Below, one piece after another: positions 18,511-37,418 of a stretch of 41,793 bases of DNA. Numbering within the stretch: the stretch's first letter is position 1; each line of letters begins with the position of its first letter. Origin of the DNA: a virus; IMG/VR virus record IMGVR_UViG_3300037119_000735, positions 1 to 41,793 of that record; one strand, 5' to 3'. The notes under the pieces were generated by a model. That model worked only from the letters and a program-made list of their open reading frames with translations, was not told the origin of the DNA and made no database searches. Made by a program: the position numbers and the translations under genes.

Positions 18511-19137
18511 ATGACATCTGCAACTGCCTGGCGGAATCGGATCATCGGGCACGGCGAGGAAGCGCCGGATCAGCTGCTCGCCAACCCCCGAAATTGGCGT
18601 ATCCACCCGAAGGCGCAGCAGGACGCGCTCGCCGGCGTGCTCGATCAAGTCGGCTGGGTCCAGGACGTCATCGTCAACCAGCAGACCGGCCACGTCGTTG
18701 ACGGCCACGCGCGAGTCGCCATCGCCATCAGCCGATCGGAGCCATCCGTCCCCGTCGTGTACGTCGACCTCTCCGAGGACGAGGAAGCCCTGATCCTGGC
18801 AACGCTCGATCCGTTGTCCGCGATGGCAGTCACCGACCGCGAGCAACTGTCAGAGCTGCTGGCCGAGATCAGCACCGGCGATGCGGCCGTGCAGGCGATG
18901 CTGGACCGACTCGCCGGGGTCACCGACGATCCGATGGCAGAGTGGCAGGGGATGCCGTCCTTCGAGCAGGAAGACCACATGCCATATCGGACGCTCAACG
19001 TGCACTTTGCCGATGCGGACGCGGTTCGAGACTTCGGGCAGATCGTCGGCCAGACGCTCAGCGATGCGACGAAGTCGATCTGGCATCCAGAGCAGCGATC
19101 CCAATCGCGCGGGACGTTCGTCAGCGATGAATCCTAG
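18511..19137 (+). CDS. ParB/Srx-fold protein
   Basis: A 208-residue protein starting at ATG 18511. Residues 20-110 contain the ParB-like nuclease/sulfiredoxin fold: LLANPRNWRIHPKAQQDAL, GWVQDVIVN, and HVVDGHARV with the DGHAR motif at 64-68. In phages such ParB-like domains often stand next to, or fused with, DNA-modifying enzymes. Here the stop overlaps the start of a TET-associated glycosyltransferase by 11 bases, so the two are probably made together. Confidence 0.8.
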   Translation: MTSATAWRNRIIGHGEEAPDQLLANPRNWRIHPKAQQDALAGVLDQVGWVQDVIVNQQTGHVVDGHARVAIAISRSEPSVPVVYVDLSEDEEALILATLDPLSAMAVTDREQLSELLAEISTGDAAVQAMLDRLAGVTDDPMAEWQGMPSFEQEDHMPYRTLNVHFADADAVRDFGQIVGQTLSDATKSIWHPEQRSQSRGTFVSDES

Positions 19138-19993
19138 ATATCCTATCTACGTCATCTCGAAGGGGCGTTCCGAGTCGCGCCTGACGAGTCGTGCGCTTGA
19201 GAGGATGCGCGTACCGTATCGGATCGTCGTCGAGTCACAGGAGTACGCCGAGTACGCCGCCGTCATCGACCCGGCGAAGATCCTGACGCTGCCGTTCTCC
19301 AACCTCGGGCAAGGTTCGATCCCAGCCCGTAACTGGGTCTGGGAGCATTCGATCAGCGAGGGGCACGCCCGTCACTGGATTCTTGATGACAATCTTCAAG
19401 ACTTTGGGCGAACGTACCGGAATACCCAGCCCAGACTGCAAGACGGAGCGGCTATCGCAGCTATGGAAGACTTCGTTGACCGATATCAGAATGTCCCGAT
19501 GGCTGGCCCGAATTATCGGACCTTCGTACCGCAGCGATCAGTGATGCCGCCGTTCTATCTGAACCATCGTGTGTACTCGTGTACCCTGCTAGCGAACGAC
19601 GTACCGCACCGCTGGCGTGGCCGATACAACGAAGACACTGACCTCTCGCTGCGCTTCTTAAAGGACGGCTACTGCACCATTCTGTTCAACGTCTTCGTCG
19701 TTCAGAAGATCCCGACGATGACGATGAAGGGCGGCAATACCGAGTCGCTGTACCTGCTGCCGGACGGTACGGACGGTCGTCTGCTGATGGCGCAGTCGCT
19801 CCAGCGTCAGCACCCGGACGTGACGAAGATCACGCGCAAGTGGGGCCGATGGCAGCATCAGGTTGACTATCGGTCGTTCAAGACGAACCGGCTCATCAAA
19901 AGGCCCGGTCTGGAGATCCCAGCCGGGCCGAACGAGTATGGGATGAAGCTCGTGACTACGGCATCTCAACAGGGTGATAGCCGTGCGAGCTAA
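19127..19993 (+). CDS. TET-associated glycosyltransferase (TAGT), DNA hypermodification
   Basis: A 288-residue protein that I recognise as the TAGT family. Visible hallmarks are YPIYVISKGR at the N-terminus, LPFSNLGQGSIPARNW, HWILDDNLQDFGR (metal-binding DDN at 87-89), AGPNYRTF, RWRGRYNEDTDLSLR and TMKGGNTE. Family members transfer sugars onto hydroxymethylated bases in phage DNA. It is translated with an upstream ParB-like protein. No TET/JBP dioxygenase or hydroxymethyl-transferase was found in the window, so the acceptor base is unknown. It might rely on a host enzyme, act on a free nucleotide, or have a different acceptor. Confidence 0.85.
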   Translation: MNPRYPIYVISKGRSESRLTSRALERMRVPYRIVVESQEYAEYAAVIDPAKILTLPFSNLGQGSIPARNWVWEHSISEGHARHWILDDNLQDFGRTYRNTQPRLQDGAAIAAMEDFVDRYQNVPMAGPNYRTFVPQRSVMPPFYLNHRVYSCTLLANDVPHRWRGRYNEDTDLSLRFLKDGYCTILFNVFVVQKIPTMTMKGGNTESLYLLPDGTDGRLLMAQSLQRQHPDVTKITRKWGRWQHQVDYRSFKTNRLIKRPGLEIPAGPNEYGMKLVTTASQQGDSRAS

Positions 19994-35119: not shown

Positions 35120-35293
35120 GTGGCCTCGTCCTGGCGCGAGCCTAACCCCCCGAGGATGCAGGAATATCGGTGCCGTGATTGCGGCCGGCTCCTGTTCAGG
35201 GCAGACGGCAAGGGCCGCGTCGAGGTCGTGTGTGCCGATAGACGATGCCGGCGCATGCAGACTAAGCAGTTGGATCAGCCGAACGGTCGATAG
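35120..35293 (+). CDS. Com-like zinc-ribbon protein
   Basis: A 57-residue protein, GTG 35120 after GGGG (GTG 35108 is an alternative start). The core EYRCRDCGRLLFRADGKGRV, followed by VVCADRRC, is the zinc ribbon of Com-like proteins, including the Mu translational activator of Mom. Com-like ribbons are also found widely as single small phage genes of unknown role. No Mom-like gene was found. It converges with, and overlaps by 32 bases, the minus-strand ribbon-helix-helix gene. Confidence 0.7.
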   Translation: MASSWREPNPPRMQEYRCRDCGRLLFRADGKGRVEVVCADRRCRRMQTKQLDQPNGR

Positions 35294-35429
35294 CACGCTG
35301 CGCGGCGTACTGCCGCAGGACGTGAATGATGAGTGAATGCAGGCTCCGATCATCCTCCTGGGCCAGTCGCTTCAAGAGGTCTCGAAGGTCATCCGGTAGT
35401 CGCAGAGTCATCGGCGTACGCTCCTGCAT
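35262..35429 (-). CDS. Ribbon-helix-helix (Arc-like) repressor next to TIGR array
   Basis: A 55-residue protein starting at ATG 35429 on the minus strand. PMTLRLPDDLRDLLKRLAQE is a textbook Arc/MetJ-type ribbon followed by helix A, and DDRSLHSLIIHVLRQYAA is helix B. It is encoded divergently from the TIGR-Tas locus and separated from it by about 75 bases with two inverted repeats (35444-35472 and 35451-35487). It probably represses itself and the array. It overlaps a Com-like gene at its 3' end. Confidence 0.8.
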   Translation of the reverse strand: MQERTPMTLRLPDDLRDLLKRLAQEDDRSLHSLIIHVLRQYAAQRAIDRSADPTA

Positions 35430-35443
35430 GGGATCAATCGTAC

Positions 35444-35487
35444 ACCAGACTGGTATCAGGTATCTGTCTGGTGGTAAGATGATACCA
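35444..35487. promoter_or_regulatory. Operator-like inverted repeats upstream of TIGR array
   Basis: ACCAGAC at 35444-35450 and GTCTGGT at 35466-35472 form a perfect 7-base inverted repeat. TGGTATCA (35451-35458) and TGATACCA (35480-35487) form a second, 8-base one. TAAGAT at 35475-35480 may be a -10 for rightward transcription. The TGATAC core resembles the TIGR loop sequence, so the operator and the array may share a binding motif. Confidence 0.55.
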
Positions 35488-35504
35488 TCTGGACATCAGA
35501 TCGT

Positions 35505-35628
35505 GGCCGGTTGAGCGTTGATACCCAAGACGAAGATGCCGCACAAGGAGGTCGGTAGATCCCTGATACCCATACCAGGAGTGCCTCAGCGCGGCCGTCT
35601 GCTGTCTGATACCCATGACGCCGGTGCC
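35505..35628 (+). repeat. TIGR array block 1 (units 1-3)
   Basis: Each unit is 36 bases: edge GGYCG, nine-base spacer A, TGATACCC, nine-base spacer B, RTGCC. Unit 1 (35505-35540): GTTGAGCGT / AAGACGAAG. Unit 2 (35550-35585): GTAGATCCC / ATACCAGGA. Unit 3 (35593-35628): TCTGCTGTC / ATGACGCCG. The loop TGATACCC is identical in all three; spacers share no sequence. The gaps between units are 9 and 7 bases. Unit length 36 matches what I know of mature tigRNAs, with two 9-base guides around a loop. Confidence 0.85.
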
Positions 35629-35647
35629 GCGCCAAAAGGAGGAGCCG

Positions 35648-36169
35648 ATGCCCAAGCGTGAAATTGAGAACCGAGACAGCCTGGTTACCTGGGTCCAGGA
35701 GCACATTGACAACGGACTGGAGCCGCACACAGCGTGCGAGGCAGCGTTTACCGAGGCGATCAAGGAGAGGCGTGCCGCTGACGTGCTGCGCGTGCTGGGT
35801 TGGCGGTATGCCTTCTACGAAATATGGGTCGAGGCCAACCGCATGAACCGCCTTCCCGAGCCCTCTCCGATCCGAGACCCGCTCGAAGGTCCGGCCGCTC
35901 GGCGCGTCAATCTCGGCGCCGTCGCTGCCGACTCGCGGTACTCGAAATTGGTAAACGTCGGCCGTCATCAATGGGTGGCGTTAGGAGACCTGACACGGTC
36001 ACAGTGCGCGGTCGTCGCTGCTGCGTACCGCGTGCGGGCAGCGGCGAACGAAGCGGAGGCGGTGCTGTTCGAGGCGCTTGGCGCGGGATTGGAGGACGAC
36101 ACCACGACCATTCGCGATAGGTTCACGGAGGCGGAGATCGCGGCGCTTCGGCAGGCTAAGGCGGCATAG
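35648..36169 (+). CDS. Actinophage-type early protein between array blocks
   Basis: A 173-residue protein, ATG 35648 with AAAGGAGG upstream. The C-terminal half (KLVNVGRHQWVALGDLTRSQ, then AYRVRAAANEAEA) resembles a small family I have seen among phages of high-GC hosts, function unknown. The N-terminal half is helical (DSLVTWVQEHIDNGLEP). It lies between array blocks 1 and 2 in the same direction as the tas-like gene. It may be a passenger, or a partner of the TIGR-Tas system. Confidence 0.6.
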   Translation: MPKREIENRDSLVTWVQEHIDNGLEPHTACEAAFTEAIKERRAADVLRVLGWRYAFYEIWVEANRMNRLPEPSPIRDPLEGPAARRVNLGAVAADSRYSKLVNVGRHQWVALGDLTRSQCAVVAAAYRVRAAANEAEAVLFEALGAGLEDDTTTIRDRFTEAEIAALRQAKAA

Positions 36170-36176
36170 ACGGACG

Positions 36177-36300
36177 GGCCGAATGAGGCTTGATACCCAA
36201 CGGCTTCGTGCCCGTCCGACCTGACCACACGATCACTGATCCCCATGAAGTCCGTGTCAGGACCGGCCGCCTGAGCACTGTTACCCACGAGCGTGGTGCC
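36177..36300 (+). repeat. TIGR array block 2 (units 4-6)
   Basis: Unit 4 (36177-36212): AATGAGGCT / AACGGCTTC. Unit 5 (36223-36258): edge GACCA, CACGATCAC, loop TGATCCCC, ATGAAGTCC, edge GTGTC. Unit 6 (36265-36300): CCTGAGCAC, loop TGTTACCC, ACGAGCGTG. Units 5 and 6 each have one change in the loop. The block lies directly before the tas-like gene, within 40 bases of its start codon. Confidence 0.85.
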
Positions 36301-36329
36301 GGTCCTGGCACCCCAACAAAGGAATAACC

Positions 36330-37127
36330 ATGAGTAACGGCCAGCCGATTCTTGATACCCAAAAAAGAGATGCCGAACTCACCCGCCTCCATGCCCTTCT
36401 GGGGCACTTCGCCCGCCAACTGTGGGACATCCAGCAGCAAAGAATAAGCGCAGGCAACCGCGTCGCCGCCATGGAACGCGACGGTCTGTCCGATTACGCC
36501 GAACCCGCCCGCGCCATCGTGGCGGAGTACGACGCCATCGAGAAGGGGATCGACCGCGAGCTAACCAAGCTGGTCAAGGGTCATTTTATGGCTCCGTGGA
36601 TCGCGGAACAGCGAGGCATCGGCTTGCCAGGGTTCGCGCGACTGCTCGGGGTGACGGGCGACATCTCGCGGTTTCCGACCGTCTCGAAGTTGTGGAAGTA
36701 TCTCGGCCTGCACGTTGTCGATGGCCGCGCCCCCAAGCGCGAAAAGGGTGTTCCGTGGACGCACACCGACTGCAAGTTCCAACATCTCCTGACCTGTCCA
36801 GCGGATTGCAAGACCGACCATCATCCGAACTGTGTACCAGGAGGCGTCGGCACCGCCTACGCCCCACAGGGGCGGGTCGTCTGCCACCAAATCGGTGACG
36901 CGATTGTGAAAATGGGAGGGGGTGGTCCGTACCGCCGTGCGTATGACGAAAAGAAGGCGTACTACGAAGCCGAGCGTCCCGACTGGACCCAGGCGAGGCG
37001 ACACAACGCGGCTGCGAGGTACGCTGTGAAGGAGTTAGTCAAGAACTTATGGATTGAATGGCACACCCGACGCGGCCAAGGTGCTGGTGACGCCCGTGTA
37101 AGTTTTGCCGCGTCCTCTGTTGCCTGA
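36330..37127 (+). CDS. TasA-like protein (IS110/Nop-type, no RuvC domain)
   Basis: A 265-residue protein; ATG 36330 follows AAAGGAAT. Residues 14-90 are predicted long helices (coiled-coil-like), the position of the Nop arm. Residues 96-140 (RGIGLPGFARLLG, SRFPTVSKLWKYLGL, DGRAPKREKG) match the C-terminal region of IS110/IS116-type transposases. Residues 148-185 hold several Cys/His (DCKF, TCPADC, HHPNC), a possible zinc-binding insert. The end, YRRAYDEKKAYYEAER and HNAAARYAVKELVKNLW, continues this family. The IS110 RuvC-like DEDD part is absent. With the 36-base array around it, a nuclease-less Tas protein is the best reading. Confidence 0.8.
   Translation: MSNGQPILDTQKRDAELTRLHALLGHFARQLWDIQQQRISAGNRVAAMERDGLSDYAEPARAIVAEYDAIEKGIDRELTKLVKGHFMAPWIAEQRGIGLPGFARLLGVTGDISRFPTVSKLWKYLGLHVVDGRAPKREKGVPWTHTDCKFQHLLTCPADCKTDHHPNCVPGGVGTAYAPQGRVVCHQIGDAIVKMGGGGPYRRAYDEKKAYYEAERPDWTQARRHNAAARYAVKELVKNLWIEWHTRRGQGAGDARVSFAASSVA
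36339..36374 (+). repeat. TIGR unit 7, inside the tas-like gene
   Basis: Edge GGCCA, spacer GCCGATTCT, loop TGATACCC, spacer AAAAAAGAG, edge ATGCC. It covers codons 4-15 of the protein (GQPILDTQKRDA). Either a functional unit doubles as coding sequence or the gene start has moved into the array. Confidence 0.8.
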
Positions 37128-37140
37128 CCCTGGGAGTGGC

Positions 37141-37315
37141 GGCCAGTCGACGCTTTATACCCAACATCACCGTGCCGCCTGACCATCGAAGGGCTGATAC
37201 CCGATAGCCAGTTGACACGGGCGGCCGGTGACCATCTTGATACCCGAGGCGCGGATGCCGCCCGCTGACTAGCAAGAAGGGCCTTGGAGCGACTGTTACC
37301 CATAATGCGGGTGCC
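37141..37315 (+). repeat. TIGR array block 3 (units 8-11)
   Basis: Unit 8 (37141-37176): GTCGACGCT, loop TTATACCC, AACATCACC. Unit 9 (37181-37216): edge GACCA, TCGAAGGGC, TGATACCC, GATAGCCAG, edge TTGAC. Unit 10 (37224-37259): TGACCATCT, GAGGCGCGG, edge ATGCC; with GGCCG taken at 37223 the first spacer is ten bases. Unit 11 (37280-37315): edge GGCCT, TGGAGCGAC, TGTTACCC, ATAATGCGG, edge GTGCC. It begins 14 bases after the tas-like stop. Confidence 0.85.
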
Positions 37316-37374: not shown

Positions 37375-37418
37375 GAGCCCTCACCAGTCGCGTACAGCGA
37401 TGGGGAGGGCTCTTTTTT
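37375..37418 (+). terminator. Intrinsic terminator closing TIGR locus
   Basis: GAGCCCTC (37375-37382) pairs with GAGGGCTC (37405-37412), loop 22 bases, followed by six T (37413-37418). The next base is the A of the ATG of the prohead protease. The 3' arm includes GGGGAGGG, the likely ribosome site of that gene. Confidence 0.8.

What the first reader, a model, noticed from the sequence alone, without database searches (positions are those of the whole stretch)
35505..37315. TIGR-Tas locus in a phage genome: eleven 36-base dual-spacer units with a nuclease-less Tas protein
Eleven units fit one model: a five-base edge (GGCCG, GGCCA or close), nine variable bases, an eight-base loop (TGATACCC with at most one or two changes), nine variable bases, and a second edge (RTGCC or close). 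Total length is 36 in all but one unit, where an extra base can be assigned. The spacers differ in all units. In the middle stands a 265-residue gene with IS110/Nop-like features and no RuvC-like part. This is the architecture I know of TIGR-Tas systems (36-base guide RNAs with two short spacers, bound by Nop-domain proteins). A TasA-type, nuclease-free version with guides in a virus would suggest targeted binding or silencing rather than cutting.
Basis: partly seen in the sequence, partly recalled or inferred. Interest (0 to 1): 0.95.

Follow-up and report, generated by a model that had tools for sequence, protein, structure and literature searches.

The report
Phage RNA-guided TIGR-TasA locus
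This phage carries a small RNA-guided DNA-binding system (TIGR-TasA) with twelve hairpin guide units, and comparison with related phages suggests that its guides are swapped in and out as cassettes and aimed at the genes of sister phages.

Summary
There are twelve units, not eleven; the twelfth (37074-37109) lies in the 3' end of the tasA gene. Each unit reads stem-CCR-9-nt spacer A-TG-NNNN-CCR-9-nt spacer B-TG-stem, and the flanks are variable palindromic stems. So this is the stem-loop-array type of TIGR, not the tandem edge-repeat type. The 265-residue protein is TasA: NCBIfam TIGR_Tas_endo E 9.5e-48; best fold hit TIGR-TasR 9mty; no RuvC or HNH domain. The locus is a new member of a known family.

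Related loci add points I found in no paper. (1) Spacer pairs turn over as whole cassettes in fixed slots, while stems and tasA stay conserved. (2) The last bases of spacers A and B are complementary far above chance (338 further units: 157 Watson-Crick, 88 expected), so both halves probably read the same central base pair of a 17-bp target. (3) With that geometry only, guides match homologous genes of sister phages (tasA, recT, a DnaA-like gene) above 1000 permutations, with little or no excess in their own genome. No target was found for the window's own guides. Most likely function: non-cleaving, RNA-guided interference between related phages.

The parts
36330..37127 (+). tasA, 265 aa, solo Nop-domain Tas protein without nuclease domain
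   Evidence: SD-like AAGGAA upstream of ATG
35648..36169 (+). conserved partner gene 'P2' (173 aa from the ATG with GGAGGAG ahead of it; open frame from 35615), unknown function, between two sub-arrays
   Evidence: homologues at the same place in L001, L012, L013, L016, L020 and L084; PHROG 4604 only weakly
35505..35540 (+). unit 1
35550..35585 (+). unit 2
35593..35628 (+). unit 3, 7-bp stem
36177..36212 (+). unit 4, 9-bp stem
36223..36258 (+). unit 5, 6-bp stem with a compensatory A-T pair
36265..36300 (+). unit 6, stem of 10 or more bp
36339..36374 (+). unit 7, inside the 5' end of the tasA coding sequence
   Evidence: same slot in L001 and L084
   Evidence: same slot in L001
37141..37176 (+). 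unit 9 (loop starts TT, box D partner G lost)
37181..37216 (+). unit 10, degenerate (poor stem, non-complementary spacer ends)
37223..37259 (+). unit 11, 10-nt spacer A, 8-bp stem
37280..37315 (+). unit 12
37375..37418 (+). rho-independent-type terminator after the last unit (strong hairpin then UUUUUU)
   Evidence: -28.2 kcal/mol, z -4.8
35262..35429 (-). Arc-like ribbon-helix-helix gene divergent from the array; possible regulator, not shown to belong to the system
   Evidence: PF03869, 1.2e-5

Best explanation
The locus is a TIGR-TasA system of the stem-loop-array type. Sub-arrays and tasA are probably transcribed in one direction and end at the terminator at 37375-37418 (inferred). A TasA dimer binds single hairpin units, whose two box C/box D pairs (CCR/TG at the stem and at the loop) fit the two halves of the dimer (inferred from the TasR structure). 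Spacer A then pairs with one strand and spacer B with the other strand of a dsDNA site, the spacer 3' ends meeting and sharing one central base pair, so the site is 17 bp. TasA has no nuclease, so it binds, opens and bends DNA and would block transcription or replication there. The targets are most likely homologous genes of related phages that compete for the same host. New guides come in by exchange of spacer cassettes within fixed slots. Shown here: family membership, stem structure, cassette turnover, spacer-end complementarity, and an excess of target matches in sister phages (family level). Not shown: expression, binding, blocking, and any target of the window's own twelve guides. My estimates: membership 0.97; 17-bp overlapping target 0.75; sister-phage targeting 0.6.
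For: Membership. Stems: (window 55/84 vs 35.0; L001 50/70 vs 29.4; both above all 20,000 permutations). Turnover: window vs L001 in 10 shared slots, spacers 27-30% identical, stems 71-74%, boxes and loops 86-95%, 4-fold synonymous sites 51-54%; L119 vs L123 tasA about 98% identical, slots either 17-18/18 or 2-5/18 identical. Spacer-end complementarity: hypothesis from the window, then three held-out sets: 22/47 vs 11.5, p 1.5e-4; 19/36 vs 10.0, p 1e-4; 157/338 vs 87.9, z about 9, next best of 81 position pairs z 2.4. Targets: positions 1-8 of each spacer only, DNA homologous to the source contig: at the 1-bp-overlap geometry 26 hits of 14/16 or better vs 8.0 (max 18 of 1000), 19 units vs 6.6 (max 14); other offsets at control level. 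Own contigs: little or no excess. Examples: unit of L158 = 17/17 in tasA of L119 and L123, own site 6 mismatches; unit of L132 = 17/17 in a DnaA_C-domain gene of L151, own homologous site 4 mismatches.
Against: No target for the window's own guides: best 14/16 in 16 kb of relatives and in itself, i.e. chance level. The broad target signal was not seen in 736 kb of more distant DNA of the same contigs, and a reversed-database control is slightly inflated. The focused test was designed after seeing the first hits; without the five best hits the 14/16 level still exceeds all 100 permutations (21 vs 7.6, max 17), but hits in related contigs are not independent. In isolate phages with box D = CG the spacer-end complementarity is not significant (9/25 vs 6.3, p 0.12), and in L048 both positions are fixed A. 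No expression data. No sigma-70-type promoter found.
Confidence: 0.65

Rival explanations
1. TIGR-TasA that regulates the phage's own genes: guides bind sites in the same genome to time gene expression, and units 7 and 8 inside tasA serve autoregulation.
For: Units lie inside both ends of the tasA coding sequence in the window and L001, so processing of these units would cut the tasA mRNA.
Against: Little sign of self targets: window best scores at chance; in 33 contigs 27 hits of 14/16 vs 18.2, p 0.03, and 2 vs 1.2 at 15 or more. Spacers change completely while stems and tasA stay, which fixed self sites would not allow.
Confidence: 0.15
2. Guides aim at the host chromosome or at unrelated mobile elements (defence or host takeover), and the sister-phage matches are a minor side effect or shared ancestry of short motifs.
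For: Most units have no match in any DNA searched; hosts are unknown; exact 17-18-mers in isolate phages are at chance level.
Against: Excess is confined to one of six offsets and to homologous phage DNA; shared ancestry would not prefer the A-rc(B) overlap geometry.
Confidence: 0.2
3. The spacer-end complementarity is an RNA-RNA pair inside the guide (last base of A with last base of B) and says nothing about the target; the true target is 16 bp plus one structural pair. This can be true together with any of the biological roles.
For: G-U is mildly enriched in the largest set (74 vs 61.4, p 0.012).
Against: G-U not enriched in the smaller sets; target matches made with positions 1-8 only show the same 1-bp spacing.
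Confidence: 0.25
4. The arrays are relics or chance repeats of an IS110-like element without function.
For: Units 9 and 10 are degenerate; PHROG and Pfam name the protein a transposase.
Against: No DEDD domain; stems and boxes kept under covariation; the same architecture with TasA in dozens of viral contigs; NCBIfam TIGR_Tas model.
Confidence: 0.02

Closest known systems
TIGR-TasA with stem-loop array (Peromyscus leucopus gut contig, Faure et al. 2025, PMC12045711)
   Same: Solo Nop protein; 13 units in three sub-arrays there, 12 units in several sub-arrays here; [quoted passage not shown] variable palindromic stems instead of edge repeats.
   Different: Here the loop is short and nearly constant (TGATACCCA), a form the paper mentions as possibly intermediate; units lie inside the tasA frame; spacer ends are complementary, whereas the paper saw no obvious covariation between spacers.
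TIGR dual-repeat arrays (FpTIGR-TasA, TaTIGR-TasR, SpTIGR-TasH)
   Same: Unit of box C, 9-nt spacer, box D, loop, box C, 9-nt spacer, box D; Nop protein (9mty best fold).
   Different: Here units are separated by linkers and closed by variable stems; no constant edge repeat; no nuclease.
IS110/IS621 recombinase with bridge RNA
   Same: Homologous RNA-binding Nop-like domain; two guides that read opposite strands and meet at a shared core (the last point from memory, not tested here).
   Different: No DEDD catalytic domain, no donor loop, many separate units rather than one bridge RNA.
Archaeal/eukaryotic box C/D snoRNP (Nop5/Nop56/58)
   Same: Nop fold (1nt2 found weakly), C/D boxes around two guides.
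   Different: Guides that would read DNA, no fibrillarin or L7Ae, no K-turn.

Membership tests
TIGR-Tas | Nop-domain Tas protein | tested here: met
   NCBIfam NF052498 163 bits, cut-off 100; 9mty phmmer E 1.2e-15; Foldseek E 8.5e-9 to 9mty
[quoted passage not shown]
TIGR-Tas | spacers of 8-12 nt that differ between units | tested here: met
TIGR-Tas | array followed by a rho-independent terminator | tested here: met
TIGR-Tas | expressed and processed guide RNAs bound by Tas | not testable with these tools
   no RNA data
TIGR-Tas | RNA-guided DNA binding with A and B on opposite strands | tested here: inconclusive
   no target found for the window's guides; target excess with this geometry in related loci
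TasA class | no RuvC or HNH domain | tested here: met
   match to 9mty covers residues 114-292 of 331 only; Pfam finds no nuclease; model helical from residue 6
Stem-loop-array TIGR | variable palindromic stems in place of edge repeats | tested here: met
Dual-repeat TIGR | constant edge repeat shared by adjacent units | tested here: not met
   linkers of differing length between units and different stems
IS110 transposase | N-terminal DEDD domain | tested here: not met
   NCBIfam IS110 23 bits of 140 required, only profile 135-259 matched

The most novel reading that the evidence does not exclude
TIGR-TasA stem arrays of phages are a hypervariable, cassette-swapped guide repertoire for RNA-guided interference between sister phages: each guide reads a 17-bp site whose central base pair is read by both spacers from opposite strands, the sites lie in replication, recombination and tasA genes of close relatives, and the carrier's own copy of the site is diverged.
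Probability: 0.5. Interest if true: 0.92.

Novelty: new member of a known kind. Interest (0 to 1): 0.75.

Why it matters
Faure et al. 2025 list the natural targets of TIGR systems, the role of nuclease-free TasA and the way arrays change as open questions. This locus and its relatives give a testable answer to each: targets in sister phages, a 17-bp overlapping read-out, and replacement of spacer pairs as cassettes inside conserved stems.

Tried and rejected
Self targets in the window and early relatives: chance level. An 18-bp abutting target and the reverse rc(B)-A geometry: no excess. Broad target signal: not used as proof, because it failed in further DNA of the same contigs and a reversed database is slightly inflated. 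An earlier count that kept position 9 was discarded as biased by the spacer-end complementarity. 17-18-mer targets of Morrissey, LonelyBoi and four window guides in 50,697 phage records: only hits expected by chance, several across artificial junctions. Genome-contig scan: none. Rfam and PADLOC: none. Megablast of the window in isolate phages: none. Idea that embedded units show coding use of arrays in general: in L012, L013 and L016 the frame is open through arrays and may be incidental; only in window, L001 and probably L084 does a unit sit after a likely start. P2 as a ParB partner (Faure's tasParB): no Pfam or PHROG support, model pTM 0.39, so left as unknown.

Full report
OBSERVATION. The units are real. 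The motif GGCCR-N9-TGATACCC-N9-RTGCC with up to three mismatches has 12 matches in the 41.8-kb window, all on one strand within 35505-37315, against 0.13 expected. Reading them with their flanks gives the model stem-CCR-A9-TG-NNNN-CCR-B9-TG-stem. The outer bases are not constant edges but arms of different palindromes: GCGCGGC/GCCGCGC (unit 3), CGGACGGGC/GCCCGTCCG (unit 4), CCTGAC/GTCAGG (unit 5), AGGACCGGC/GCCGGTCCT (unit 6). Units were chosen by motif only, and their 3' arms pair with their own 5' arms far better than with those of other units (55/84 against 35.0, maximum 53 in 20,000 permutations; L001 50/70 against 29.4). A twelfth unit, 37074-37109, has an 8-bp stem and lies in the last codons of the 265-residue gene.

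PROTEIN. P0001 passes the NCBIfam TIGR_Tas_endo cut-off (E 9.5e-48), matches the TIGR-TasR chain 9mty over the Nop part only and folds (AF2, 15 sequences, pLDDT 81, pTM 0.77) into a helical protein whose best solved neighbours are TasR, several TasH structures, IS621/ISCro4 and weakly Nop5. It has no nuclease domain: it is a TasA. The paper that defines the family (PMC12045711) describes TasA with stem-loop arrays, some with a conserved loop; the window belongs there.

NEIGHBOURHOOD. The locus sits between glycosyltransferase genes and the prohead protease and capsid genes of a tailed phage. A strong hairpin followed by U6 ends it at 37418. Between sub-arrays lies a 173-residue gene (P2) whose divergent homologues stand at the same place beside TasA in L001, L012, L013, L016, L020 and L084; it is restricted to this clade (6 loci of the pattern set against 39 with TasA). 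Its function is unknown.

RELATED LOCI. Protein searches and two pattern scans of IMG/VR gave more than 40 loci with three or more units, most with TasA on the same strand. Isolate phages of Gordonia and Mycobacterium (Morrissey, LonelyBoi, Rich) have the same stem units with box D = CG beside genes annotated as hypothetical.

TURNOVER. In window and L001 (tasA 85% identical) ten units occupy the same slots. Their spacers are 27-30% identical, i.e. random, while stems (71-74%), boxes and loops (86-95%) and even 4-fold synonymous sites (51-54%) are more alike. L084, the next relative, shows the same in six slots (35/108 spacer bases identical, 63/90 stem, 49/54 loop). In L119 and L123 (tasA region about 98% identical) slots are either 17-18/18 identical or 2-5/18, so spacer pairs are exchanged as blocks. 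One unit occurs in two slots of L119, and a few spacers are shared without their partner, which suggests recombination through stems and loops (inference).

SPACER ENDS. In the window the last base of A and of B can pair (G-U included) in 11 of 12 units. This was taken as a hypothesis and tested on held-out units with permutation of B within each locus: 22/47 Watson-Crick against 11.5 (p 1.5e-4); 19/36 against 10.0 (p 1e-4); 157/338 against 87.9 (0 of 20,000). Of 81 position pairs this one has z about 9, the next 2.4. It is not significant in CG-box isolate phages. Faure et al. report no obvious covariation between spacers and an 18-bp abutting target for TasR.

TARGETS. If both spacers read the same central base pair, targets should be 17 bp, 5'-A-rc(B)-3' overlapping by one. 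To avoid bias only positions 1-8 of each spacer were scored. In DNA of other contigs that is homologous to the source contig, matches of 14/16 or better number 26 at this offset against 8.0 (maximum 18 of 1000 permutations), in 19 units against 6.6 (maximum 14); the five other offsets are at control level. The source's own contig shows little (27 against 18.2 at 14/16, p 0.03; 2 against 1.2 at 15 or more). Best cases: a guide of L158 matches 17/17 in tasA of L119 and L123 and has 6 mismatches in its own tasA; a guide of L132 matches 17/17 in a DnaA_C-domain gene of L151 (own homologous site 4 mismatches), with a second guide 80 bp away at 15/17; guides of L146 and L119 match recT of relatives. 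Self mismatches in these chosen cases are partly expected from selection; the permutation tests carry the argument. Limits: the focused test followed a first look, the hits are not all independent, a broad search did not extend to distant DNA, and the window's own guides have no match above chance, with only 16 kb of homologous DNA at hand.

READING. Membership in TIGR-Tas (TasA, stem-loop arrays) is settled as far as sequence and fold can settle it. The mechanism I favour is non-cleaving interference with sister phages by RNA-guided DNA binding, with a guide repertoire renewed by cassette exchange. Units 7 and 8 inside tasA would make guide processing cut the tasA mRNA, a possible feedback (inference).

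Noticed in passing
window 35262-35500: Arc-like ribbon-helix-helix gene on the - strand, divergent from the array, with repeated CCAGA..TCTGG-type words in the intergenic stretch that look like an operator.
   Followed up: partly
window 36330-36374 and 37074-37127; L001; L084: TIGR units overlap the start and the end of the tasA coding sequence, so the protein's first 15 or so and last 15 or so residues vary with the spacers.
   Followed up: partly
L013 3562-3740 and 5605-5840: Units in strict tandem with periods 35 and 39 and shared, alternately complementary edges: looks like an intermediate between stem-loop and dual-repeat arrays.
   Followed up: partly
L119, L123, L146, L158: Two stem types (CGGTCG/CGACCG with loop TGAAGCCCA; GCGCGCCCGG/CCGGGCGCGC with loop TGATGCCCA) alternate along the arrays.
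   Followed up: no
L048 2002-3822: A+T-rich array with fixed A at the last base of both spacers (box D = ATG, 8-nt spacers) and loop TGAAACCCT.
   Followed up: no
L033 3626-4825 (Gordonia phage LonelyBoi gp46): Two hairpin units lie in the middle of the annotated TasA coding sequence.
   Followed up: no
window P0001 residues 146-176: Low-confidence insertion with spaced Cys and His (C148, C156, C160, H164/H165, C168), shared with L001, L012 and L013 but absent from L016: possible zinc ribbon.
   Followed up: no
L087: Thirteen units on a 15-kb contig without a detectable TasA.
   Followed up: no
window 18881-19993: Match to PHROG 842, beta-glucosyl-HMC-alpha-glucosyltransferase, and other glycosyltransferases nearby: possible DNA or capsid glycosylation.
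   Followed up: no
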